Below are positions 8,945-23,205 of a stretch of DNA of 64,000 nucleotides, piece after piece (within the stretch, counting starts at the first letter, position 1; each line of letters opens with the position of its first letter). A program made the position numbers and the translations under genes. The stretch spans positions 1,302,001 to 1,366,000 of the forward strand of contig NZ_CP117167.1 in the NCBI RefSeq assembly GCF_028596025.1, given 5' to 3'. The notes under the pieces are model-generated. The model was not told the origin of the DNA and ran no database searches. It worked only from the letters and a program-made list of their open reading frames with translations. Origin of the DNA: Mucilaginibacter jinjuensis. Lineage in GTDB: Bacteria; Bacteroidota; Bacteroidia; Sphingobacteriales; Sphingobacteriaceae.

Positions 8945-9526
8945 TTGAAGAATATCAACCAGACAAGCAATATCAAGGTGGCATCGTTTTTTGCGTTTCT
9001 CTCGATGGGAACGCTAATATTTTGCATTCTTGTCTTGACGCTTGCGTTGCCTTTTAGTCCTATAAAAAACTTCATCCCGCGGCAGAAGAACCTTAAAATG
9101 GTTATACCCCAGGGATGGGGTTTTTTTACCAGGGATCCTCGTGAGGACTCTTTTAAATTGTATCGAGCTGATAGAGCTCCATTGGTCGATTTTAGACCTC
9201 AAACTAACTCAAGCAGCGAAAATTTATGGGGCTTACGGAGGAATGCGCGTGCGTTAGGTATTTTATGTGGTTCTATTTACAAGCAAATTGAAGAAAAGGA
9301 TTGGGTCGAAGTAACTGATTTTGATCCACAAAGATTTAAGAGCCAGGAAATTAAAAGCCTTCAAATCACCACGGCTAGTGAAAATCATACGCTATGTGGT
9401 CAAACTTTTATATTAGTTCGGTACAAACCAATCCCCTGGGCATGGGCAGCCAGCGTAAGGGGGACAACAGGAATGCAGTCTTATGTCGCAAAAATCCATG
9501 TTAACTGCAGTAAACAAGGTAAGTAA
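8945..9526 (+). CDS. sdpA: SdpA-family maturation protein
   Basis: A 193-residue protein of the SdpA family, needed with SdpB to mature the SdpC toxin in Bacillus. It has one N-terminal membrane helix (about 12-36) and the family block PQGWGFFTRDPRE (residues 55-67). The start is a TTG at 8945, 17 bases after the sdpC stop; the in-frame ATG at 9005 would cut the membrane helix, so TTG is preferred. The last 44 bases overlap sdpB. B. subtilis SdpA is about 158 residues. Confidence 0.85.
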   Translation: MKNINQTSNIKVASFFAFLSMGTLIFCILVLTLALPFSPIKNFIPRQKNLKMVIPQGWGFFTRDPREDSFKLYRADRAPLVDFRPQTNSSSENLWGLRRNARALGILCGSIYKQIEEKDWVEVTDFDPQRFKSQEIKSLQITTASENHTLCGQTFILVRYKPIPWAWAASVRGTTGMQSYVAKIHVNCSKQGK

Positions 9527-10466
9527 TCTGGCTTATCGGCTTGCTGATAGTGGAATTATTAGCAATACTTATGGTGTTGGGCGATCTGTACTGGCCATAG
9601 GTACTTTAATTACATTAATTTTTAATAGTGATGTGACTCTTTTTGGAGACATACATAGTCAAGGATTCCTTAACTACAAAGTAATAGGACTGGCTAATTT
9701 CAGTCTATTTTATGTACTAAAAGCCCACATCTTTTACGCAAAAATAGTTTCGATAGCAATCTTAACGCTAACCTTATCGGGTTGGCGGCCAAGGTATACA
9801 TGCATCCTTCATTGGTATGTTGCATTTAGCTTTAACCTTTTTACGCAAGTTGCGGACGGTGGCGACCAGATAACTTCTGTGCTTACATTTCTTTTAATTC
9901 CTATTTGTCTCCTTGACAACAGAAAAAATCATTGGACGGCGGGATCGTTATTGACAAAAAACGTTTATCTGGGCTTAATAAGGTACTTTGTTTATATTTT
10001 AATCAGACTTCAGGTTGCGATTTTATACTTTGATGCAGCAATTGAAAAATTCAAAATAACTGAATGGGTAAATGGAACTGCATTATGGTATTGGTTTAAC
10101 GATCCAATAGTAGGTTTAAATTCATTTTGGAAACCGCTGCTTTTACCGGCATTAAAAAATCCGGTTTTTGTAACTCTTTTGACGTGGACTCCTGTAGGAT
10201 TTGAATTGTTATTGTTTCTTGGCTTAACGATCAAAAAAGGTTATCGCCCATATTTACTTATATTAGGAATTGGCTTTCACTTTGTAATTCTCGTGATTCA
10301 TGGGCTGGTTAGCTTCTTTTTCGCAATGTCAGGTGCTTTAATTTTATACCTAAGACCTTGGAATGATGAATTTAAAACAAAATTGGCATTCCCTGCAAAG
10401 CCTTTGAAACAAAACTCCTCTGCACCTAAAAAAGATGAAATTGGCACTCTTTCGGAACAATATTAA
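9483..10466 (+). CDS. sdpB: SdpB-family integral membrane protein (HTTM-like)
   Basis: A 327-residue polytopic membrane protein, close to the length of B. subtilis SdpB (about 320). It has several hydrophobic helices and the HTTM/vitamin K-dependent carboxylase-like pattern, with YFVYILIRLQVAILYFDAAI near the middle and the WVNGTALWYW segment after it. With SdpA it would convert the SdpC precursor to active peptide. It overlaps sdpA by 44 bases, so translation is coupled. The order C-A-B differs from the A-B-C order of Bacillus. Confidence 0.85.
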   Translation: MSQKSMLTAVNKVSNLAYRLADSGIISNTYGVGRSVLAIGTLITLIFNSDVTLFGDIHSQGFLNYKVIGLANFSLFYVLKAHIFYAKIVSIAILTLTLSGWRPRYTCILHWYVAFSFNLFTQVADGGDQITSVLTFLLIPICLLDNRKNHWTAGSLLTKNVYLGLIRYFVYILIRLQVAILYFDAAIEKFKITEWVNGTALWYWFNDPIVGLNSFWKPLLLPALKNPVFVTLLTWTPVGFELLLFLGLTIKKGYRPYLLILGIGFHFVILVIHGLVSFFFAMSGALILYLRPWNDEFKTKLAFPAKPLKQNSSAPKKDEIGTLSEQY

Positions 10467-12659: not shown

Positions 12660-12757
12660 ATGAAAGAGCAATAGTCAGCGTATGTCTTTCAGGATTCGAA
12701 CCTGCCCGCTTACGCGGTTTCACCGGCGAAGTATCACACACTTACGGCATCTTTCAT
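12660..12757 (-). ncRNA. Ro60-associated Y-RNA-like ncRNA, unit 1
   Basis: On the minus strand the 98-nt RNA is closed by a perfect 8-bp stem (ATGAAAGA with TCTTTCAT). It carries the boxes shared by all six units: GATGCCGTA at the 5' side, TACTTCG about 13 nt later and TTGCTC at the 3' side. Inside are a CCGC-GTAA-GCGG hairpin with a GNRA loop and a tRNA-type T-arm, CAGG-TTCGAAT-CCTG. It has no D-arm. The 3'-most member of an array behind a Ro60 gene. Confidence 0.75.
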
Positions 12758-12763
12758 TATGTT

Positions 12764-12901
12764 TTAAAAAAGGGCAAAAAGCAACCGGTGAGGTTTTTTA
12801 TAATTAGACTACTGCAATTGCCTGCAGGCAGAATTCGAATCTGCACCTTTCCCCGAAGGGAACATCCTACCGAAGTATCACCAGTTTACGGCACCTTTTA
12901 A
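12764..12901 (-). ncRNA. Ro60-associated Y-RNA-like ncRNA, unit 2
   Basis: About 138 nt on the minus strand. It has the shared boxes GGTGCCGTA, TACTTCG and GGTTGCT, closed by an A/U-rich stem (AAAAGG with CCTTTT). Inside are a UUCG-capped hairpin (TTCCC-TTCG-GGGAA), a perfect 5-bp T-arm (GCAGA-TTCGAAT-TCTGC) and then CTGC-AGGCAATT-GCAG, a small hairpin with a GG-containing loop resembling a D-arm. Confidence 0.7.
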
Positions 12902-12977
12902 GGTTTAGGTATTAATACTAACCCCCTAAGAGGGATAATCTGTTTTTTTATTCTTCCTTTAGGGGATTGGGGGGGGA

Positions 12978-13051
12978 AAGAAGAGCAACATTTAACCAGC
13001 GTTCGGTTTTGCGTGACAGGCGAAGTAACGCTGAGCCTACGGCATCTTCTT
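12978..13051 (-). ncRNA. Ro60-associated Y-RNA-like ncRNA, unit 3 (short)
   Basis: The shortest unit, about 74 nt on the minus strand. The closing stem is AAGAAGA with TCTTCTT. The shared boxes GATGCCGTA, TACTTCG and TGTTGCTC are present, and CAGCGTT pairs perfectly with AACGCTG to form the inner stem. It has no T-arm, so it keeps the presumed Ro60-binding part but lacks the tRNA-like module. Confidence 0.65.
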
Positions 13052-13054
13052 AGT

Positions 13055-13189
13055 AAAAGGGTAACAGGTGATAAATGCGTGTTTTCTTCTGCGTTCTATC
13101 CATATTAAACTACCTCTTTGCGGGAGGGCCGGATCCGAGCCGGCGTCTCAGACTTGGAATCGAAGTAGCATTTATCTACGACACCTTTT
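13055..13189 (-). ncRNA. Ro60-associated Y-RNA-like ncRNA, unit 4, permuted tRNA-like core
   Basis: 135 nt on the minus strand. The closing stem is AAAAGG with CCTTTT; boxes GGTGTCGTA, TACTTCG and TGTTACCC are present; inner stem GATAAATGC with GCATTTATC is a perfect 9 bp. The core has a T-arm (GCCGG-CTCGGAT-CCGGC, 13128-13144), then a CCTC/GAGG stem, then a D-arm-like hairpin (GTTT-AATATGGATA-GAAC, 13093-13110). T-arm before D-arm is the order of a circularly permuted tRNA. Confidence 0.75.
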
Positions 13190-13205
13190 ATTTTTAATCT
13201 CTTTT

Positions 13206-13338
13206 AAAAGAAGGGCAACGAGCAATAAGCCATTCTGCACTGTGCTCTATCCATTTGAGCTACCCTTTCGGGGACGGACTCGAACCGCCAACCCCAGCGT
13301 CCCAAACGAAGTAAGGCTTATTTACGACACCTTCTTTT
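13206..13338 (-). ncRNA. Ro60-associated Y-RNA-like ncRNA, unit 5, permuted tRNA-like core
   Basis: 133 nt on the minus strand. Closing stem AAAAGAAGG with CCCTTCTTTT; boxes GGTGTCGTA, TACTTCG and CGTTGCCC; inner stem AATAAGCC with GGCTTATT, perfect 8 bp. A canonical T-arm (GGCGG-TTCGAGT-CCGTC, 13273-13289) leads into a short CCC-GAAA-GGG stem and then a near-perfect tRNA D-arm (GCTC-AAATGGATA-GAGC, 13244-13260). This is the clearest tRNA mimic in the array. Confidence 0.8.
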
Positions 13339-13346
13339 TATTTTTA

Positions 13347-13469
13347 TAAGGAGCAACAGGCGAACGCGGGATGGGGGACCGCTTAGGGACTCGAACCCTC
13401 AGTATCACGTTAATGGCACTGACCTCCCCCTCCAATGGTGCGAAGTATCCCGTTTCTACGGCATCCTTA
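13347..13469 (-). ncRNA. Ro60-associated Y-RNA-like ncRNA, unit 6
   Basis: 123 nt on the minus strand and the first unit after the Ro60 stop codon (54 bases away). Closing stem TAAGGA with TCCTTA; boxes GATGCCGTA, TACTTCG and TGTTGCTC; inner stem CGGGAT with ATCCCG. It carries a T-arm (AGGG-TTCGAGT-CCCT, 13385-13399). The 5' half has a G-rich insert where units 4 and 5 have little, and no clear D-arm follows the T-arm. Confidence 0.75.
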
Positions 13470-13522
13470 AGCCCCCCCCCAGCCCCCTAAAGGGGGAGTG
13501 GGCATTTCCCTTGTTTCCCCTT

Positions 13523-15112
13523 TTAGGGGGTTAGGGGGATATTATTAATAGCATCCAACGCCGAGCCTCCGTTTTCTAAGGCAGCTAACACCTCGAAAAC
13601 TTTATCGCTCCAGCCTGCTATCAGGTACACATTGTTGTGCAATAGCTGCAAAGGCGCTTGTCCGTAACCTTTCAGATCGAACAGGTAGAGCTTTGCATTT
13701 GGCGCAACCTGGGTTTTGTATTGTACCCACAAGGCATGGATATGTTCGCCACTGGTGTCCGTACTGTTCCATAACTGGCAGTCGGTAAACAGCATCACTT
13801 TATCCATTTTTACACGGCGCTGTAACAGGTCTTTGATAACCAGGTAGCCATTGGTGCTGTAACCCACCTCGCCCTCGCGGCGATAAAACTCCTGCACGTT
13901 ACCCAATATATTGTTACGTGGCACCGTGATGGTTTTCCATCTATCGCCAAACATACCCACCTCCACGTTTTTACAGCGGCTTTGCAGCAGCATAGCCAGC
14001 ATCAGGCCCACATCGTACAATAGTACCTTGCTTTTGGCAGATACCGGTGTCTGCATCGAACCCGAAACATCGCAGGCCAACAATACACGGGTATTGTAGT
14101 CGAAACCTTTAATGTTGGCAGCACTTGCCTGTACGGCTTGTTCTAAAGCATCCAGCAATGCGCCGGTGTAGCCTTTGTTGCCCGACAGCAATGCGCTCAA
14201 TTTTTGAGTTAAACCTTTTAGCGGCGAATCTGTACCCGCAACTATCAGCTCGCGGTAAGCTGCCAGGTAACGGAACGGAAACTGTTTTGCCTTAGCAACC
14301 TCATTAGCATCAGCCAAACGCCCGCATACTTTCTGGAAGTGCGCGTAGCTTACGCCTGCTTCCTGTATATTGCGCAGGTTACGCAGCAGGGCCATGTAAC
14401 CCAGTTTGCCGCCATCAATCAGCTCTTCCCATTTAGCACGGAACGCTAAGGCCTTAGCCTCATTGCTATCGAAATTAAGCTGCCCTAATGCCGATAGCTC
14501 GGTTTCCCAGGTATAAGGCGTTTGCAGGTCGCCGTTTACTATTTTGTTGAACAACACCTGCTGCAATTCGTCCTTTGCTTTTGGGTGAACCAGGAACAAG
14601 GCATCGCGCAGTTTTATAGCGCCATCACGGTTGTATTTGGCAAACTGGTACTCGTCGAAACGGTTAAATGCCGTGCTCAAACCTTTTTGTAATTGCTTGC
14701 TCAGGCGGTTCAGCTTTTTAGTGCCGGTGCGTTGGTTTAGCATCTGGTAGCAGGCTAACAATTCGGTAATCTCATCAGCACGGCCTATTACGCCGTCGGT
14801 AACCCGGGCAACCAGATCGTCGCCCGAGTGCAGCTTAGCCAATTCGGTAACCAATACCAACGGTGCCGAACGCAAATACATTTTGGTGCGTGCATATACT
14901 GCCAGCTTACCCACAAATATGGGGCTGCATTTGGCTATCAATGTGCGCAGGCGTTCCATACGCTTTTCGTCTTTTTCGTAAAAGGAATCGTTTAAGCTCC
15001 AGGTAACCACCGCGGTGTATAGTTCCATTTCGGCGCTTAGGGTAAAAGCCTTTTCGCCGGCATGGTTTACCGTGGTTGTTTTGTTGAATTTGCTTAACAG
15101 GTTGAATTTCAT
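13523..15112 (-). CDS. rsr: Ro60/Rsr orthologue (TROVE domain protein)
   Basis: A 529-residue bacterial Ro60. The ring-forming TROVE HEAT-repeat domain covers about residues 10-340 and the C-terminal von Willebrand A-like domain about 340-515, with the MIDAS start DVSGSMQ. Ro60 binds Y RNAs on its rim and misfolded RNA ends in its ring, and in bacteria works with exonucleases in RNA decay and rRNA maturation. A strong GGAGG site lies just before the ATG, unusual among its neighbours. The last residues (IPLTP) are encoded by an intergenic CCCCTAA-type repeat. Six Y-RNA-like units follow on the same strand, and its promoter shares an operator with rtcB1. Confidence 0.92.
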   Translation of the reverse strand: MKFNLLSKFNKTTTVNHAGEKAFTLSAEMELYTAVVTWSLNDSFYEKDEKRMERLRTLIAKCSPIFVGKLAVYARTKMYLRSAPLVLVTELAKLHSGDDLVARVTDGVIGRADEITELLACYQMLNQRTGTKKLNRLSKQLQKGLSTAFNRFDEYQFAKYNRDGAIKLRDALFLVHPKAKDELQQVLFNKIVNGDLQTPYTWETELSALGQLNFDSNEAKALAFRAKWEELIDGGKLGYMALLRNLRNIQEAGVSYAHFQKVCGRLADANEVAKAKQFPFRYLAAYRELIVAGTDSPLKGLTQKLSALLSGNKGYTGALLDALEQAVQASAANIKGFDYNTRVLLACDVSGSMQTPVSAKSKVLLYDVGLMLAMLLQSRCKNVEVGMFGDRWKTITVPRNNILGNVQEFYRREGEVGYSTNGYLVIKDLLQRRVKMDKVMLFTDCQLWNSTDTSGEHIHALWVQYKTQVAPNAKLYLFDLKGYGQAPLQLLHNNVYLIAGWSDKVFEVLAALENGGSALDAINNIPLTP

Positions 15113-15293: not shown

Positions 15294-15756
15294 TATTCCT
15301 CCAAAAAAATAATTAAATAATATTACAGAATATTCTTTATTTTAAATAATATTCTGTATACTTGCAGTGAATATAATCCTCCGGCTTATTTACCGCTGTA
15401 ACAAACCGTCCGCTCTGTCTGTAGCATAGGCTCCCCGGGACGCGGACAGCACAAAATCAGTTATGAGTTTTGAATCGCGAGTTTTGAGTTAATACGCACT
15501 CATTCGCAATTCACTCATTCGCAACTAAAACATATCCTATAGCTCTGTTTTCAGATGAAAGCCTATAAATAGGCTAATGGAGGGGTATTTCTTAAAAATC
15601 CGTTCGGATTTTAAATCAATGATAGAATGAGTGAAGGAGAGAATGAGTGAATGGAAAGCACTATTCTATCATTCAAAATTCACTCATTCACTCATTCAAA
15701 ATTCTATCATTCAAAATTCACTCATTCTATCATTCACTCATTATTTAAAAACCCGC
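15294..15756. other. Noncoding region with operator and iteron-like repeats
   Basis: No gene. It holds a 10-bp inverted repeat (ACAGAATATT at 15325-15334, AATATTCTGT at 15348-15357) and a further GTCCG relative near 15408. From about 15490 to 15745 short units of the form ATTCACTCATTC and ATTCTATCATTC recur many times in direct order, ending 12 bases before the ATPase gene. Direct repeats before a RepA-type gene resemble iterons, but they could be a simple expanded repeat. Confidence 0.5.
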
Positions 15757-16794
15757 ATGAAAATTAATGCCGAAGAACTGCAACGCCAAAGCCTTGAGCT
15801 GTTAGCAGAACAACAACAACCCGAAAACAACGACGACGTATTACTGGTACGGCGTGTTAACCACTGGATGGAACAAGCCAGCCTTAGATCAATCCCCCTG
15901 ATGCTGTTTGGCAAATTTTGGCACCAGGGCGAAGTATGCATCCTGTATGCCGATAGCAACCTGGGCAAAAGTATTGTTGCCGTACAAATTGCCGATGCCA
16001 TTAGCCGGGGCACAGGCGTTTATCCCTTTGATGTAGAAGCACCCGCACAACCCGTTTTATATTGCGATTTTGAATTGACCGATAAGCAGTTTGAAGCCCG
16101 CTACTCGGTAAACTTTACCAACCACTACGAGTTTAGCCCCAACTTTTATCGTGCCGAGTTAAACCCCGAGCTGGAGATACCCGAGGGCTTTGCCGATTTT
16201 GATGAGTACCTTAACTATGCGCTTGAACGTGCTGTACTGCAAACCAACGCCAGGGTTTTAATTATTGATAACCTAACCTATCTGCGCAGCGAAACCGAGC
16301 AGGCTAAAGATGCTTTACCATTGATGAAACAGTTGAAAGCCCTTAAAAACAAGCACGACCTGAGCATATTGGTATTAGCTCACACCCCAAAGCGCGACTT
16401 AACCCAAGCCATTACCCGCAACGATTTACAAGGCAGCAAAATGCTGATGAACTTTTGCGATAGCGCATTTACCATAGGCGAAAGCAATGCCGATAGCAGC
16501 CTGCGTTACCTTAAACAAATTAAGCAACGCAACACCGAGCAGGTTTATGGCGAAAGCAACGTATGCCTTTGCCAGATAGATAAGCCTTTCAATTTTTTAC
16601 AATATGAGTTTGTAAGCTTTGGCGAAGAATGGCAACAACTATTACGCAAAAAAGGCGAAGCCGACGAAAGCCTGATTGCCGATGTGATGGCGCTTAAACA
16701 AAAAAACTACAGCCTGCGCGAAATTGGCAGGGCCCTGGGCATATCGCACCAAAAAGCTGATAGGATAATTAAAGCGCATACACAACAGTTATGA
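15757..16794 (+). CDS. RepA-like AAA ATPase (AAA_25) with C-terminal HTH
   Basis: A 345-residue RecA-fold ATPase from the ATG at 15757; sequence read further upstream is translated repeat. The Walker A motif is ADSNLGKS (about 68-75) and Walker B is VLIIDNL. A C-terminal helix-turn-helix (YSLREIGRALGISHQKADRI) ends the protein. Such proteins act as replicative helicases or initiators of plasmids and phage-like elements. The primase-like gene at 17097 follows on the same strand, giving an ATPase-primase pair. Confidence 0.8.
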   Translation: MKINAEELQRQSLELLAEQQQPENNDDVLLVRRVNHWMEQASLRSIPLMLFGKFWHQGEVCILYADSNLGKSIVAVQIADAISRGTGVYPFDVEAPAQPVLYCDFELTDKQFEARYSVNFTNHYEFSPNFYRAELNPELEIPEGFADFDEYLNYALERAVLQTNARVLIIDNLTYLRSETEQAKDALPLMKQLKALKNKHDLSILVLAHTPKRDLTQAITRNDLQGSKMLMNFCDSAFTIGESNADSSLRYLKQIKQRNTEQVYGESNVCLCQIDKPFNFLQYEFVSFGEEWQQLLRKKGEADESLIADVMALKQKNYSLREIGRALGISHQKADRIIKAHTQQL

Positions 16795-16884
16795 GTAGTG
16801 AATGAGTGATTGGTGAGTTGTGAATAAATGATAAAGGACTTTTCTACTCACTCATTCGTAACTCAAAACTCGCAACTATCTTTT

Positions 16885-16930
16885 CGTCCGTCGCTTTCCC
16901 CTCCCGTACAGCCCGTTACAAAGCGGACAG
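16885..16930 (+). repeat. GTCCG...CGGACAG repeat, copy B
   Basis: A 46-bp copy with the same CCCCTCCCGTACA and GTTACAAAGCGGACAG core as 15247-15293, located between the ATPase and primase-like genes. Confidence 0.65.
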
Positions 16931-16942
16931 CTTAGCGCTTTT

Positions 16943-17053
16943 ATTCCCCTCTCGAGAGGGGTTAGGGGTGTGTTCTTTCTGCAAGCGATAGCGCGTGCGC
17001 ATAAACACACCCCTGCCATCGCACAAGCAACCGCGCCCCCTCTCAAGAGGGGA
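16943..17053. repeat. ATTCCCCTC palindromic repeat, copy 1
   Basis: An element of about 110 bp with complementary ends (ATTCCCCTCTC...GAGGGG) and an inner GGGGTGTGT/ACACACCCC pair. Two closer copies lie at 51356-51453 and 51500-51597. It lies upstream of the primase-like gene and makes the reading frame look artificially long there. Confidence 0.65.
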
Positions 17054-17096
17054 GTTTGAGCTTCCCGACAACCGACAACCAACCATCAACAACAAA

Positions 17097-18122
17097 ATGA
17101 ACTATCACCTGCAACCCTACCGTGGCATGCAAACCCGCCACCATTGCCCGCAATGCAAGCATCATAGCAAAAGTTTTGTGCGCTACGTAAACATCGAAAC
17201 CGGTGCCGAACTGGCAACGCATGTAGGCCGGTGCAATCGCTTCGATAAATGTGGTTACCATTATAACCCACGCAAATATTACCTCGACAGCGGCTATAAA
17301 CCCTGGACAGCCGATGGCGTAACTTTTAACCGAAACTTCGATGCCATAAGCCACCCTAATGATAGGCAGCACCGCCAATGGCTTAGAGATAACCGACTCG
17401 AGTACACACCGCCCAGCCCCAAACCTGTAAAAACCATACAACAATATATAGATGGGCACGATGTGGACAGCAGCTACAACAATTACGATAACAATAATTT
17501 TGTGCAGTACCTCATTAAACGCTTCGGCTACGATAAAGCCAACGAGTTGGTGGGCAAATACCGCATAGGCACCAGTAACCACTGGCCCGGTGCAACTATA
17601 TTTTGGCAGATAGATACCGAAAATTATGCCCGCACAGGCAAAATAATGTTGTATGATAAAGAAACAGGCAAGCGGGTAAAAGCACCCTTTAACCATATTA
17701 CATGGGCACACAGCCTGTTAATGAAGCATAAAACAGATATAGATTTTCAGCTTAACCAATGTTTGTTTGGCGAACACCTGCTGGCAGATTTACCAGAACC
17801 AACACCACGCAAAAAAGGCACTCCGATAGCGTTGGTAGAAAGCGAGAAAACCGCCATTATAGCCAGCGCCACCATGCCCCAGTTTATATGGCTGGCCTGC
17901 GGAAGCCTTAACGGGCTAAACCCCATTAAATGCCGCATACTTAGAGGCAGGCAGATAATGCTTTTCCCAGATGTAAACGCCTATGCCCTGTGGCAAAAGC
18001 AAGCCCGCCTGATGCAGCAAATGCTACCGGGATCAACCATAACAGTATCGCCCGTGCTAGAAGAATTAGCCACAGACCAGGACCGCCAAAATGGTGTAGA
18101 CCTGGCAGATGTGCTTGGATGA
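17097..18122 (+). CDS. DUF6371-like primase/Toprim protein
   Basis: A 341-residue protein from the ATG at 17097, chosen because upstream codons are translated repeat. The N-terminus holds a zinc-ribbon-like set (CPQCKHH, then CNRFDKCGYHY), as in CHC2-type primases. The C-terminal half has Toprim-like features: ALVESEKTAIIAS with its catalytic Glu, then IMLFPDVNAY with the acidic pair position. DUF6371 proteins next to RepA-like ATPases are common in Bacteroidota elements. A primase role is inferred. It ends 16 bases before repeat copy C. Confidence 0.75.
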   Translation: MNYHLQPYRGMQTRHHCPQCKHHSKSFVRYVNIETGAELATHVGRCNRFDKCGYHYNPRKYYLDSGYKPWTADGVTFNRNFDAISHPNDRQHRQWLRDNRLEYTPPSPKPVKTIQQYIDGHDVDSSYNNYDNNNFVQYLIKRFGYDKANELVGKYRIGTSNHWPGATIFWQIDTENYARTGKIMLYDKETGKRVKAPFNHITWAHSLLMKHKTDIDFQLNQCLFGEHLLADLPEPTPRKKGTPIALVESEKTAIIASATMPQFIWLACGSLNGLNPIKCRILRGRQIMLFPDVNAYALWQKQARLMQQMLPGSTITVSPVLEELATDQDRQNGVDLADVLG

Positions 18123-19854: not shown

Positions 19855-21357
19855 TCAATCCTCCGGCTTCTCCCTCGCATCAGCCATACGTACTATCCTC
19901 GGTTCAAACTTAGCCAGTACTTCTACCAGGTCATTTTGCGCAGCCATTACGGTGTGGATGTCTTTGTAAGCCATTGGGGCTTCGTCCATGTCGCTACCCA
20001 TCAGGGTGATGCGTTTTTCTACCAAATTGGCGGCAATGGCAGCTTTATCCAGTCTTTTAAAAGCGGCACTACGGCTCATAGCCCTACCCGCACCGTGACT
20101 GGCGGAATTAATGCTTGCCGCATCACCTTTCCCGCGGACTAAAAAGCCGGGCGTACTCATACTGCCGGGGATAATACCCAGCACGCCTTCACCGGCAGGT
20201 GTTGCGCCTTTACGGTGCACCATTACTTCGGTACCATCAGCCAGCTGCTCTTTCCAGGCAAAGTTGTGGTGGTTCTCTATCATGCTAATGGGTTTAACAC
20301 CCAAAGCATGGGCAATTTTGTTATGGATCTCGTGGTGGTTGGCGCTGGCATATTCGCCGGCAAGGTTCATGGCAATCCAGTACTCCTGGCCCTCGTCTTT
20401 ATCCAGATCTAACCAGGCCAAATGTTTGGCTTCGGCAGGCAGTTTGGTTTTGGTCATGGCAATACGGCTGTAGTAGTCGGCTACGGCACCACCAAAACCA
20501 CGCGAACCCGAGTGCGAAAGTAAAGCCAGGTATTTACCGGCAGGGATACCGGTTAAAGCACCTTCGGCAATATCCAGTTCGCCCCATTCTACAAAGTGGT
20601 TGCCGGTACCGCTGGTACCCAGCTGCGCATAAGCCTTATCCTTTAACGAGCGGATCAACTTAGTTTCGCCCCAGCTTTTGCTGTCGAACAAAGAACTATC
20701 AAAGTACGATTTGGTAGTACACCCCATCCCGAAGTAAGTGTTATCCACCAATATATTCTTCAGCTTATCGGTTTCGGTATCAATAGCTTCGGCGGGTAAA
20801 TCAAAAATGCTTAAACACATACGGCAGGCAATATCCACACCCACAGCAAAGGGGATAATGGTATTGGCGGTAGTAGCCAGCACCCCGCCAATAGGCAGGC
20901 CGTAACCCTGGTGCGCATCGGGCATTAAAGCGCCGGCAACAGCAATGGGTAACTGTACTGCGGTACGCATCTGTGCCAAAGCACCCACCTCAATATGCTC
21001 CAACCCCCATACCGGGAATTCGGCTATCTCTTCTTTCAGCTTAAAATTGCTGCGTTGCTGCTTTACAAATTTGCCTTCTTTACGCAGGGCAATAACATCT
21101 TCAGCCAGGTTTTTAAACTTACCGCCTTTTTTTAAGGCGTATGGGATGGGGTCGTCAATCAAGGCTTCCAGATTAGCCAGTATCTCGGGCTTAGCCATTA
21201 CGTTGTGTTTCAGCAATCCATTAGCTACGCGGCTAAAGTTTACCAGTATATCTACGTCGTTAATACCGAGCGCTTTTAACTCGTTGTTACCTATCTTTTC
21301 TTTTTGCGCCCCTGCGCTTTCAAGAGCGGATGTTTCGGTGCTATTTTGCTTTCTCAT
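19855..21357 (-). CDS. rtcB: RtcB RNA ligase, paralogue 1
   Basis: A 500-residue RtcB from the ATG at 21357 (an upstream frame start exists at 21381). RtcB joins 2',3'-cyclic phosphate or 3'-phosphate ends to 5'-OH ends using GTP and Mn2+. Diagnostic stretches are MPDAHQGYGLPIGGV, GVDIACRM with the metal Asp and Cys, GTSGTGNHFVEWG, SHSGSRGFG and NSASHGAGRAMSRS with the guanylylated His. Its promoter carries the same TGCGCA operator as Ro60, and a WYL-KptA gene is divergent from it. No archease or RtcA is present in the window. Confidence 0.93.
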   Translation of the reverse strand: MRKQNSTETSALESAGAQKEKIGNNELKALGINDVDILVNFSRVANGLLKHNVMAKPEILANLEALIDDPIPYALKKGGKFKNLAEDVIALRKEGKFVKQQRSNFKLKEEIAEFPVWGLEHIEVGALAQMRTAVQLPIAVAGALMPDAHQGYGLPIGGVLATTANTIIPFAVGVDIACRMCLSIFDLPAEAIDTETDKLKNILVDNTYFGMGCTTKSYFDSSLFDSKSWGETKLIRSLKDKAYAQLGTSGTGNHFVEWGELDIAEGALTGIPAGKYLALLSHSGSRGFGGAVADYYSRIAMTKTKLPAEAKHLAWLDLDKDEGQEYWIAMNLAGEYASANHHEIHNKIAHALGVKPISMIENHHNFAWKEQLADGTEVMVHRKGATPAGEGVLGIIPGSMSTPGFLVRGKGDAASINSASHGAGRAMSRSAAFKRLDKAAIAANLVEKRITLMGSDMDEAPMAYKDIHTVMAAQNDLVEVLAKFEPRIVRMADAREKPED

Positions 21358-21460
21358 ATACCTGAGCTTGTAATTTAACAATTTTAATTCTCCGGGCTAA
21401 AACCCCTCTCCCCAAATTGAGAGAGGGGGGCGTTTGTAAACAGGTTTAGCCTTTCTACAG

Positions 21461-21600: not shown

Positions 21601-23205
21601 ATGCCTGTTAACCGCAACGCCCTGATCCGCTACCGCACCATTGACCAATGCCTGCAAAACCGCTTTAAGAAATGGACACTGGATGACCTGATAGATGCCT
21701 GCAGCGATGCCATTTACGAGTACCAGGGAATTGATTCAGGTGTAAGCCGCCGTACCGTACAGGCTGATATGGAAATGATGCGCAGCAACAAGCTGGGCTA
21801 CGAAGCGCCGATTGTGGTGGTTGATAAAAAATATTATACCTACAGCGATAAAAATTACAGCATTACCAATAGCCCGCTAAACCAGCAGGATATGCAGGTG
21901 CTGAGCGAAGTATCGGGCTTGTTAAAGCAGTTTAAAGGCTTTAACCATTTCACCGATCTGAATGAGATGGTGAGTAAACTGGAAGATAAGATCTACTCGC
22001 AAAAAACACAAAGCACCCCGGTAATTGATTTCGAAAAGAACGATAATCTGAAAGGCTTGGAGTGGATAGAAGTGATCCGCAAAGCTATTGTGGCTAAGAA
22101 AACGATATGTATTACCTATCAATCTTTTAAAGCCAGGGAAGCCAACACCTTTTGTTTTAGCGGGTATCTGTTGAAAGAATATCGCAACCGCTGGTTTGTT
22201 TTGGGGATGCAGCACAAGCGCAACGCCCATATCATGAACCTGGCTTTAGACAGGATACAAGCCGTGGCAGAGCATGAAGAACCTTACCGCGAGAACCGGA
22301 CATTAGACCTGGCAACGTATTATAATGATTGTATAGGGGTAACCAAATCTCCCGGTCAGCGCGATTGCGAGGTGATATTTTGGATAGATGCTGCCAATGC
22401 GCCTTATGTGGTTACCAAGCCTTTGCACCACACGCAAAAACTGCTAAGCGAAGATGAAAACGGGAAGATATTTAGTATCAGGGTAATCTTAAACTTTGAA
22501 CTGGAACGCGAGTTACTGGGTTTTGGCGCCAAAATGAGAGTATTGGGGCCAAGGGTACTGGTAAAGCAGATAAAAGCGCAGTTGGCTAAAACCATAGAGA
22601 ATTATGGCAAAAATAATATCATGACACCTGCAAATACCCTAACTTCAAACCACATTATGAAAGAAAAAGATACAACGGATATCAGCAAATTTTTAAGCCT
22701 GGTACTAAGGCACCAGCCCCAGGTAATTGGTATTGAACTGGATGAACAGGGCTGGGTAAGTGTTGATGAGCTGTTAAAGCAAGCCAACGCACATGGTTAT
22801 ACTTTAGATTGGGACCTGTTGAATGATGTGGTTGAAACCAACAGTAAAAAACGTTTTGCTTTTGACGACAGCAGGCAGAAGATCCGTGCCAGCCAGGGGC
22901 ATTCGGTTGAGGTTGATTTAGGTTACCAGGCGCAAATACCACCCGAAATACTTTATCACGGGACCGGGGAAAAATCGGTTGCTGCCATTCAGGAAAGCGG
23001 CCTTGAAAAACGAAGCCGCCAGCATGTACATTTAAGCAAAAATATAGAAACCGCTGTACAGGTTGGCAGCAGGCACGGTAAACCGGTAGTTTTTAACGTG
23101 CTTGCAGGCGAAATGCATAAAAATGGATATGTGTTTTATCTGTCAGAAAATAAGGTTTGGTTAACCGATCATGTACCTGCTGAATTTTTAAGATTAGACG
23201 AATAA
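21601..23205 (+). CDS. kptA: WYL-domain regulator fused to KptA/Tpt1 RNA 2'-phosphotransferase
   Basis: A 534-residue two-part protein. Residues 1-340 are a WYL regulator: an N-terminal DNA-binding region with SRRTVQADMEMM, a WYL domain (about 150-230, ITYQSF, FSGYLLKEYRNRWFVLG) and a WCX-like tail (GAKMRVLGP). After a 12-residue linker, residues 353-534 are a full-length KptA/Tpt1, with LSLVLRHQPQ, the ASQGHSVEVD block, LYHGTG and RQHVHLS. KptA uses NAD+ to remove an internal 2'-phosphate from spliced RNA. A methionine sits exactly at the KptA start (22657), so separate KptA could also be made. Divergent from rtcB1, it is the best candidate to bind the shared operator. Confidence 0.88.
   Translation: MPVNRNALIRYRTIDQCLQNRFKKWTLDDLIDACSDAIYEYQGIDSGVSRRTVQADMEMMRSNKLGYEAPIVVVDKKYYTYSDKNYSITNSPLNQQDMQVLSEVSGLLKQFKGFNHFTDLNEMVSKLEDKIYSQKTQSTPVIDFEKNDNLKGLEWIEVIRKAIVAKKTICITYQSFKAREANTFCFSGYLLKEYRNRWFVLGMQHKRNAHIMNLALDRIQAVAEHEEPYRENRTLDLATYYNDCIGVTKSPGQRDCEVIFWIDAANAPYVVTKPLHHTQKLLSEDENGKIFSIRVILNFELERELLGFGAKMRVLGPRVLVKQIKAQLAKTIENYGKNNIMTPANTLTSNHIMKEKDTTDISKFLSLVLRHQPQVIGIELDEQGWVSVDELLKQANAHGYTLDWDLLNDVVETNSKKRFAFDDSRQKIRASQGHSVEVDLGYQAQIPPEILYHGTGEKSVAAIQESGLEKRSRQHVHLSKNIETAVQVGSRHGKPVVFNVLAGEMHKNGYVFYLSENKVWLTDHVPAEFLRLDE

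What the first reader, a model, noticed from the sequence alone, without database searches (positions are those of the whole stretch)
12660..13469. Six tandem Y-RNA-like ncRNAs behind a Ro60 gene
Six minus-strand units share GRTGYCGTA (5' box), TACTTCG and a GTTGCYC 3' box, each with its own closing stem and usually a perfect inner stem whose two arms differ between units but remain complementary (compensatory change), e.g. GATAAATGC/GCATTTATC versus AATAAGCC/GGCTTATT. Five have tRNA T-arms. They follow the Ro60 gene on the same strand at spacings of 3-76 bases. Bacterial Y RNAs are known to be tRNA mimics encoded next to Rsr; six in a row, one without a T-arm, would be an unusually large set.
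Basis: partly seen in the sequence, partly recalled or inferred. Interest (0 to 1): 0.93.

Follow-up and report, generated by a model that had tools for sequence, protein, structure and literature searches.

The report
Six Y-RNA units behind a Ro60 gene
Behind its Ro60 gene this bacterium carries six short DNA units that share one conserved stem and are likely Ro60's small-RNA partners (Y RNAs); arrays of this kind stand beside nearly all related Ro60 genes examined, and the head of one unit is predicted to be a tRNA shape opened at a different place from the known kind.

Summary
The six units are real and almost certainly Y RNA genes. Their stems covary within the six (17 of 22 pairs changed on both sides, 0 of 500 shuffles). 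A covariance model of these six alone finds six places in the 6.16 Mb genome at E <= 0.001, all here, and 408 places in 79 of 80 related Ro60 loci, all on the Ro60 strand. In 296 Bacteroidota genomes, 18 of 19 with units have Ro60; the 19th has a truncated Ro60 piece beside its unit. What fails is 'unusually large': the loci hold a median of 5 units, Mucilaginibacter-type loci 6, one 10 or 11. Rfam's YrlA recognises some heads, below its cut-off wherever tested. New here: heads of several architectures within one array. Many are called tRNAs once circularised (112 of 268; 0 in three shuffled sets). Most of these are opened at the anticodon loop, as in YrlA; a minority, with window unit 5 at lower stringency, in the D-loop, which I met in no paper I could search. 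Best reading: one Ro60-binding handle with exchangeable heads, likely adaptors to tRNA-handling partners. Transcription, binding and function are untested.

The parts
13523..15112 (-). Ro60 / Rsr protein gene (529 aa)
   Evidence: Pfam TROVE PF05731 E 1.2e-27 and vWA_Ro60 PF25045 E 7.2e-9; the only TROVE gene found in the genome; phmmer match to solved TROVE proteins 9l5y/9kop, E 3.5e-22
13347..13469 (-). Y RNA unit 1 (class B head: GGGGG..T-arm..CCCCC)
   Evidence: R1 74.5 bits (all six units are in R1's training set); similar heads in relatives
13209..13335 (-). Y RNA unit 2 (class A head: T-arm, capped acceptor stem, D-arm; YrlA topology)
   Evidence: R1 89.7 bits; Rfam YrlA 33.9 bits, E 2.4e-5 over 13239-13297; not called a tRNA by ARAGORN even when circularised, at 85% threshold
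13055..13189 (-). Y RNA unit 3 (class A head)
   Evidence: R1 90.0 bits; Rfam YrlA 22.4 bits, E 0.052
12979..13050 (-). Y RNA unit 4 (class D: short hairpin, no T-arm, loop CCTGTCACGCAAAA)
   Evidence: R1 54.5 bits; close loop sequences in other Mucilaginibacter, Flavihumibacter and Pontibacter arrays
12768..12899 (-). Y RNA unit 5 (class E head: fits a tRNA form opened in the D-loop, anticodon-like hairpin kept)
   Evidence: R1 92.6 bits; circularised head called a tRNA at 90% ARAGORN threshold with the junction in the D region after trimming 6 nt; untrimmed, at lower threshold, ARAGORN draws another D-arm; 3-4 bp D-stem possible in 17 of 17 class E units
12662..12755 (-). Y RNA unit 6 (class C head: T-arm plus small hairpin)
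   Evidence: R1 81.0 bits; T-arm hairpin in alignment and fold
19855..21381 (-). RtcB RNA ligase gene
   Evidence: Pfam PF01139 E 4.8e-83; homologue within the fetched flanks of Ro60 in 34 of 80 loci
21601..23205 (+). WYL/WCX regulator fused to a Tpt1/KptA RNA 2'-phosphotransferase domain
   Evidence: Pfam PF13280, PF25583, PF01885; homologue, mostly of the WYL part, within the fetched flanks of Ro60 in 44 of 80 loci

Best explanation
Six units behind the Ro60 gene share one covarying stem and are predicted to be Y RNAs that would bind Ro60 through that stem and present different, mostly tRNA-like, heads. The shared handle is the closing stem, the 5' box GRUGYCGUA, the inner stem, UACUUCG and the 3' box; it stays the same in all classes while the head changes (shown by sequence). 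Heads are tRNA forms opened at the anticodon loop (units 2, 3), one that fits a tRNA opened at the D-loop (unit 5), a T-arm head flanked by G and C runs (unit 1), a T-arm head (unit 6) and a plain hairpin (unit 4) (predicted from sequence). The array would be transcribed with or just after Ro60 and cut or terminated into single RNAs (inferred). Each head would bring Ro60 to a different tRNA-handling partner, such as PNPase, RtcB or tRNA-modifying enzymes, so that one Ro60 ring is targeted in several ways (inferred from YrlA in Salmonella and the Deinococcus Y RNA).
For: Covariation within the six and across the 150 best of 411 hits (93.9% of cells paired against 71.6% shuffled, 763 double changes against 211; that alignment is fitted to the model). 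Six hits genome-wide, all here. Co-occurrence in 296 genomes, the window's own included: 18 with both, 1 units only (with a truncated Ro60), 6 TROVE only, 271 neither; when ten such regions were searched together, three of the six TROVE-only genomes showed units at E <= 0.01, two weaker hits, one none at E <= 1. In 80 loci 408 model hits, all on the Ro60 strand; by the finder 383 units in the 3 kb downstream (233 kb) against 28 in 1773 kb elsewhere or on the other strand. Heads: 112 of 268 are called tRNAs when circularised, 0 in three shuffled sets; none in linear form at default settings. U33, R37, A38 and G46/C48 stand at the tRNA distances before the T-arm in class A. Rfam YrlA matches below cut-off. 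RtcB and WYL-Tpt1 nearby. YrlA is a known circularly permuted tRNA mimic (PMC11472068, passages) and a tether between Rsr and PNPase (PMC8394870 and PMC4726728, passages).
Against: No transcript, binding or knock-out data. No match reaches Rfam's YrlA cut-off. Folding energies of single units are ordinary. ARAGORN does not recover unit 2 even when circularised, and its drawing of unit 5 depends on trimming. At default settings 156 of 268 heads are not called tRNAs. RNAalifold did not predict the acceptor-like stem of class B. Whether different heads have different partners is inference.
Confidence: 0.73

Rival explanations
1. The heads mimic broken tRNAs: tRNA forms opened at the anticodon loop or D-loop with the cut ends held by the Ro60 stem. 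They would serve as placeholders or allosteric signals for the repair enzymes RtcB and Tpt1, one RNA per type of break, rather than as generic adaptors.
For: Of 112 circularised heads called tRNAs at default, the Y stem enters within 6 nt of the anticodon in 92 and in the D region in 6; class A heads mostly start with an anticodon-loop-like sequence soon after TACTTCG (76 of 96); RtcB in 34 and WYL in 44 of 80 loci; in Salmonella the rsr-yrlBA-rtcBA operon responds to tRNA fragments (PMC7790460, passages).
Against: No evidence that RtcB binds these RNAs; classes B, C and D are not opened tRNAs by these tests; RtcB was not found in 46 of 80 loci within the fetched flanks.
Confidence: 0.15
2. 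Decoys: the tRNA-like heads are expressed on stress to occupy tRNA-attacking nucleases or phage factors.
For: Hughes et al. suggest YrlA as a possible competitive inhibitor of an anticodon nuclease (PMC7790460, passage); 17 of 22 Ro60 loci on viral contigs carry such units too.
Against: Class A heads lack an intact anticodon stem-loop; hairpin units without any T-arm (about 98 of 389) would have no such role.
Confidence: 0.08
3. A cluster of decayed tRNA genes or tRNA-derived repeats without function.
For: T-arms and D-arms are clearly tRNA-like; unit number varies (0-10 per locus downstream).
Against: Handle stems are kept by compensatory change; the handle occurs without any tRNA part; all 408 locus hits are on the Ro60 strand. 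ARAGORN and Rfam find no tRNA in the window, and none of 53 Rfam tRNA places of the genome lies in the array. One unit on viral contig L150 does just pass Rfam's tRNA cut-off (30.0 against 29 bits).
Confidence: 0.02
4. The units are mainly 3' processing, attenuation or stability elements of the Ro60 messenger.
For: They follow Ro60 closely on the same strand; median gap between units 11 nt.
Against: Several units per gene with different heads are not needed for that; in L075, for five units of L057, and on 13 of 17 unit-bearing viral contigs they lie upstream of Ro60.
Confidence: 0.03

Closest known systems
YrlA (Rfam RF02553), bacterial Y RNA next to rsr in Salmonella; structure 6CU1
   Same: Encoded beside Ro60; terminal stem; head with T-arm, capped acceptor stem and D-arm in circularly permuted order (Rfam alignment; PMC11472068, passages). 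Units 2 and 3 share this topology.
   Different: Below the Rfam cut-off wherever tested (33.9 and 22.4 bits here, up to 48.3 in relatives, cut-off 69). The handle has its own boxes incl. TACTTCG. Arrays of about five mixed units, against two Y RNAs implied by the Salmonella operon name yrlBA. Classes B, C, D and E have other heads.
Deinococcus radiodurans Y RNA in the Ro60/Y RNA/PNPase complex (RYPER)
   Same: An RNA that holds Ro60 by a stem and tethers it to a partner enzyme (PMC4726728, passages); model for the proposed mechanism.
   Different: Not compared by sequence here; PNPase binding not tested.
rsr-yrlBA-rtcBA RNA-repair operon of Salmonella
   Same: Ro60, more than one Y RNA and RtcB together (PMC7790460, passages).
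   Different: Here a divergent WYL regulator fused to Tpt1/KptA lies by RtcB; in the window other genes stand between RtcB and Ro60. RtcR and RtcA were not searched for.
Permuted tRNA genes
   Same: tRNA halves in swapped order (class A, E).
   Different: Recalled knowledge: permuted tRNA genes yield functional tRNAs; these heads are capped at the acceptor end and joined to a Ro60-type stem.

Membership tests
Bacterial Y RNA (broad sense) | Encoded next to a Ro60/Rsr gene | tested here: met
   The first unit starts 53 nt after the Ro60 stop codon; linkage in other genomes
Bacterial Y RNA (broad sense) | 5' and 3' ends pair in a conserved stem | tested here: met
   Helix 1: 100% of cells paired in the six, 98.3% in 150 hits, with double changes
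Bacterial Y RNA (broad sense) | At least one Y RNA per species with a tRNA-like domain | tested here: met
   Units 2 and 3, 5; the criterion itself is recalled from the abstract of Chen et al. 2014, paper not held
Bacterial Y RNA (broad sense) | RNA is made and binds Ro60/Rsr | not testable with these tools
   No expression or binding data available
YrlA (Rfam RF02553) | Score at or above the gathering cut-off (69 bits) | tested here: not met
   No match at gathering in the window or in 11 relatives' loci; best 33.9 bits here, 48.3 in L064
YrlA (Rfam RF02553) | Head order T-arm, capped acceptor, D-arm inside an anticodon-like stem | tested here: met
   Unit 2 aligned to model positions 23-86, unit 3 weakly to 1-114; no YrlA match listed for units 1, 4, 5, 6 at E <= 10
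YrlA (Rfam RF02553) | Modified by tRNA enzymes (DusA, TruB) and tethers PNPase | not testable with these tools
   Reported for YrlA in PMC8394870 (passages)
tRNA gene | Folds as a tRNA in its own linear order | tested here: not met
   ARAGORN 0 in the window; 0 of 268 heads in linear form at default settings; none of 53 Rfam tRNA places in the array

The most novel reading that the evidence does not exclude
Bacteroidota Ro60 works with a cassette of interchangeable Y RNAs whose heads are tRNAs opened at different places, anticodon loop, D-loop and possibly acceptor end, each the image of a tRNA broken at that place, so that a single Ro60 ring can be steered to the matching repair or decay enzyme. 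The D-loop-opened class is a tRNA permutation not described before.
Probability: 0.22. Interest if true: 0.85.

Novelty: new variant of a known kind. Interest (0 to 1): 0.6.

Why it matters
From the passages read, bacterial Y RNAs have been studied by experiment in very few species, and what their tRNA-like heads are for is open. A group where Ro60 comes with about five Y RNAs of several head types gives a natural mutant series: heads can be compared, swapped and tested against partners. D-loop-opened heads would show that tRNA mimicry in this family has been built more than one way. Rfam misses the family at its cut-off in the loci tested, so these genes are likely unannotated in Bacteroidota genomes (annotation not checked), a phylum whose gut members' Ro60 is discussed in lupus.

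Tried and rejected
'Six is a record' rejected: relatives have up to 10 by the finder, 11 by a looser pattern and by the model (L035). Single-sequence folding gave no support. A first stem-by-stem test of head topology against simple shuffles was weak: of 310 heads 56 fitted A only, 7 E only (one of them a class B head), 3 both (two of them plain class A), 203 neither, 41 without T-arm. The circularisation test replaced it. At 80% ARAGORN threshold shuffled sets also give hits (24, 31, 29 of 268) and the D-region set takes in heads outside my 17, so only the default and 90% results are used; at 90% shuffles gave 2, 0 and 1. In that test 'anticodon loop' means within 6 nt of the called anticodon and 'D region' 11-24 nt from the tRNA start. 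RNAalifold on 30 class B units supported the Y stems and 2 T-stem pairs but not a GGGG/CCCC stem; I therefore do not claim a third permutation as shown. A target for the unit 4 loop was sought: at up to 1 mismatch its complement occurs in the genome only opposite unit 4 itself. tRNA places of the own genome were listed, but a head-by-tRNA comparison was not run.

The 17 class E units were picked by me: 13 from the 46 pattern hits (window unit 5, L023, L063, L080) from the lists. So the permutation test (65 D-stem pairs against a mean of 42.0, maximum 62, 0 of 20000) has a selection caveat; a first parse scored two of them as zero (57 against a mean of 34.7, maximum 50, 0 of 10000). ARAGORN, blind to this choice, put the junction in the D region for 6 heads at default and 11 at 90%, all among the 17.

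The class counts (A 129, D 98, C 61, B 52, E 17, long without T-arm 32; 389 units) come from simple rules and are approximate. Finder hits outside the 3 kb downstream (28) were left out of them, although some are real arrays upstream of Ro60 (L057, L075). L036 has no unit because its contig ends inside the Ro60 match.

Full report
WHAT IS THERE. The Ro60 gene, 13523-15112 minus, has TROVE and vWA_Ro60 domains and is the only TROVE gene found in the genome. Directly behind it, on the same strand, stand six units. Constant across the six are the bulged GRUGYCGUA box, UACUUCG and the paired 3' box; the two stems vary but stay mostly paired.

IS IT REAL. On the six alone, 17 of 22 pairs change on both sides, 93.7% of cells pair (72.1% in shuffles) and no slid version comes near. 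I built a covariance model, R1, from these six only. In the own genome it finds these six and no other at E <= 0.001. In 80 Ro60 loci (the best 80 of 508 relatives) plus the window it finds 411 hits in one run (best 300 listed). Rerun in two halves at a matching threshold, with every hit listed, it finds 414: the window's six, and 408 in 79 of the 80 loci, all on the Ro60 strand. Across the 150 best hits, 763 cells show double change against 211 in shuffles (the alignment is fitted to the model). Single-sequence energies are not unusual. A separate pattern-and-pairing finder gives 383 units in the 3 kb downstream on the Ro60 strand (233 kb) and 28 in the remaining 1773 kb of both strands, some of them real upstream arrays.

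LINK TO RO60. In 296 Bacteroidota genomes drawn evenly, the window's own included, R1 hits 19 and TROVE 24; 18 have both. 17 of the 19 have two or more hits. The one unit-bearing genome without TROVE, G131, holds a truncated Ro60 piece (122 aa matched) beside its unit. Of six TROVE-only genomes, three show units at E <= 0.01 when ten regions were searched together, two only weaker hits, one none at E <= 1. Most loci have the units after Ro60; in L075, for five of L057, and in G096 they precede it, on the same strand. Of 22 Ro60 loci on viral contigs, 17 have R1 hits, 48 in all, all on the Ro60 strand; in 13 only upstream, in 3 only downstream, in 1 both.

HOW MANY. Finder units in the 3 kb downstream, 80 loci: 0 (2 loci), 1 (3), 2 (5), 3 (10), 4 (9), 5 (22), 6 (17), 7 (6), 8 (5), 10 (1); the median of 25 Mucilaginibacter-type loci is 6. 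Gaps between neighbours: median 11 nt, 237 of 310 at most 30 nt. So six is ordinary for this group, though it exceeds the two Y RNAs implied by the Salmonella operon name yrlBA.

WHAT THE HEADS ARE. The head is the part between UACUUCG and the 3' inner arm. By simple rules, 389 units in 79 loci, window included, fall into A (T-arm then D-arm, 129), D (short hairpin, no T-arm, 98), C (T-arm, no D-arm found, 61), B (T-arm head with a G run before and a C run after, 52), E (17) and long heads without a recognised T-arm (32). 69 of 79 loci hold at least three of these groups. The window reads B, A, A, D, E, C.

CIRCULARISED HEADS ARE OFTEN tRNAs. Given linearly, 0 of 268 heads of 50 nt or more is called a tRNA by ARAGORN at default settings; doubled, 58 are, and 0 in five dinucleotide-shuffled sets. 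With up to 10 nt trimmed at the junction, 112 of 268 are, and 0 in three shuffled sets; at 90% threshold 147, with 2, 0 and 1 in shuffles. At default the junction, where the Y stem enters, is by the anticodon for 92, in the D region for 6 and elsewhere for 14; at 90% it is 97, 11 and 39. Unit 5 of the window is among the 11 (6 nt trimmed); untrimmed at 85% ARAGORN draws a different D-arm. L080:8291 gives a full cloverleaf with seven acceptor pairs. Unit 2 is not called even when circularised, but aligns with Rfam YrlA.

CLASS A keeps the anticodon loop's right part. In 96 class A-type heads with enough sequence, the tRNA place of U33 is T in 79% (of 91), R37 is A or G in 79%, A38 is A in 68%, and the variable loop reads G45 78%, G46 89%, U47 62%, C48 78%. 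The selection contains a few class E heads.

CLASS E fits an opening in the D-loop. After UACUUCG comes the 3' half of a D-stem, then an anticodon-like hairpin, variable loop, T-arm, acceptor part (capped in most) and the 5' half of the D-stem. All 17 can form 3-4 D-stem pairs between strands more than 40 nt apart, in the forms GAGC/GCTC, GAAC/GTTC, GAC/GTC and others: 65 pairs against a mean of 42.0 and a maximum of 62 in 20000 exchanges of partners among units. I chose the 17 partly by eye; relatedness of the units is not corrected for. RNAalifold on the same 17 predicts the Y stems, the anticodon-like hairpin and the T-arm, not the D-stem.

SURROUNDINGS. RtcB (19855-21381) and a WYL regulator fused to Tpt1/KptA (21601-23205) lie nearby. 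RtcB homologues are found in 34 and WYL homologues in 44 of 80 loci within the fetched flanks, in the order WYL (divergent), RtcB, Ro60, array in L023, L029, L030, L031 and L033, and with RtcB after the array in Flavobacterium loci. In the window an AAA_25 gene and a DUF6371 gene sit between RtcB and Ro60; neither was found in the 80 loci.

HOW IT LIKELY WORKS. Known from papers (passages read): Rsr binds the lower stem of Y RNAs and in Deinococcus the Y RNA tethers Rsr to PNPase (PMC4726728); YrlA's head is acted on by DusA and TruB (PMC8394870) and is a circularly permuted tRNA (PMC11472068); the Salmonella rsr-yrlBA-rtcBA operon responds to tRNA fragments (PMC7790460). The constant handle and variable heads found here fit an adaptor set: Ro60 would take up one RNA at a time, and the head would decide the partner. 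Shown: handle, head sequences, linkage. Predicted: head folds. Inferred: transcription, processing, binding, partners.

NOVELTY. Bacterial Y RNAs near Ro60 are known from many species (Chen et al. 2014; abstract recalled, paper not held), so the kind is known. In nine literature searches (listings, plus passages from seven papers) I met no account of Bacteroidota arrays, mixed head classes or a D-loop-opened head. The library lacks the main papers on bacterial Y RNAs, so this is weak evidence of absence. Rfam at its cut-off recognises no YrlA in the window or in 11 relatives' loci.

Hit counts and strands were redone in full; the trimming dependence of unit 5 and the RNAalifold result for class E were added, and confidence was lowered from 0.74 to 0.73 for the former.

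Noticed in passing
15631-18122 (+): AAA_25 and DUF6371/Zn-ribbon genes, of the kind seen in mobile elements (recalled), lie between RtcB and Ro60; no homologue found within the flanks of 80 related Ro60 loci.
   Followed up: partly
13473-13560 and about 12900-12990: C-run/G-run palindromes (CCCCTAAAGGGG type) at the end of Ro60 and in the largest spacer; similar palindromes are in spacers of L007, L024 and L035. The first overlaps the last codons of Ro60.
   Followed up: no
L147-L168: Viral contigs carry Ro60 with the same units (17 of 22 loci), mostly upstream of Ro60; in L147 a true tRNA gene sits between two units, and in L150 one unit just passes Rfam's tRNA cut-off (6 of the 22 were given to Rfam).
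   Followed up: partly
L107: A genome with one unit and a truncated Ro60 piece: apparent decay of the system.
   Followed up: partly
L116 (G289): A second, distant TROVE protein (24% identity to the query) in a genome that also has a typical Ro60 with array; only a weak unit hit there, E 0.036.
   Followed up: no
13008-13020 and class D units in relatives: The loop CTGTCACGCAAA of unit 4 recurs in Mucilaginibacter and Pontibacter and, with small changes, in Flavihumibacter and others; many Flavobacterium short units have another loop (TTCCAAGAAAATTAA type). Role unknown.
   Followed up: partly
8945-10466 (+): SdpA-like protein (PF17418) followed by an HTTM-domain protein (just below its cut-off): possible SdpAB-like pair.
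   Followed up: no
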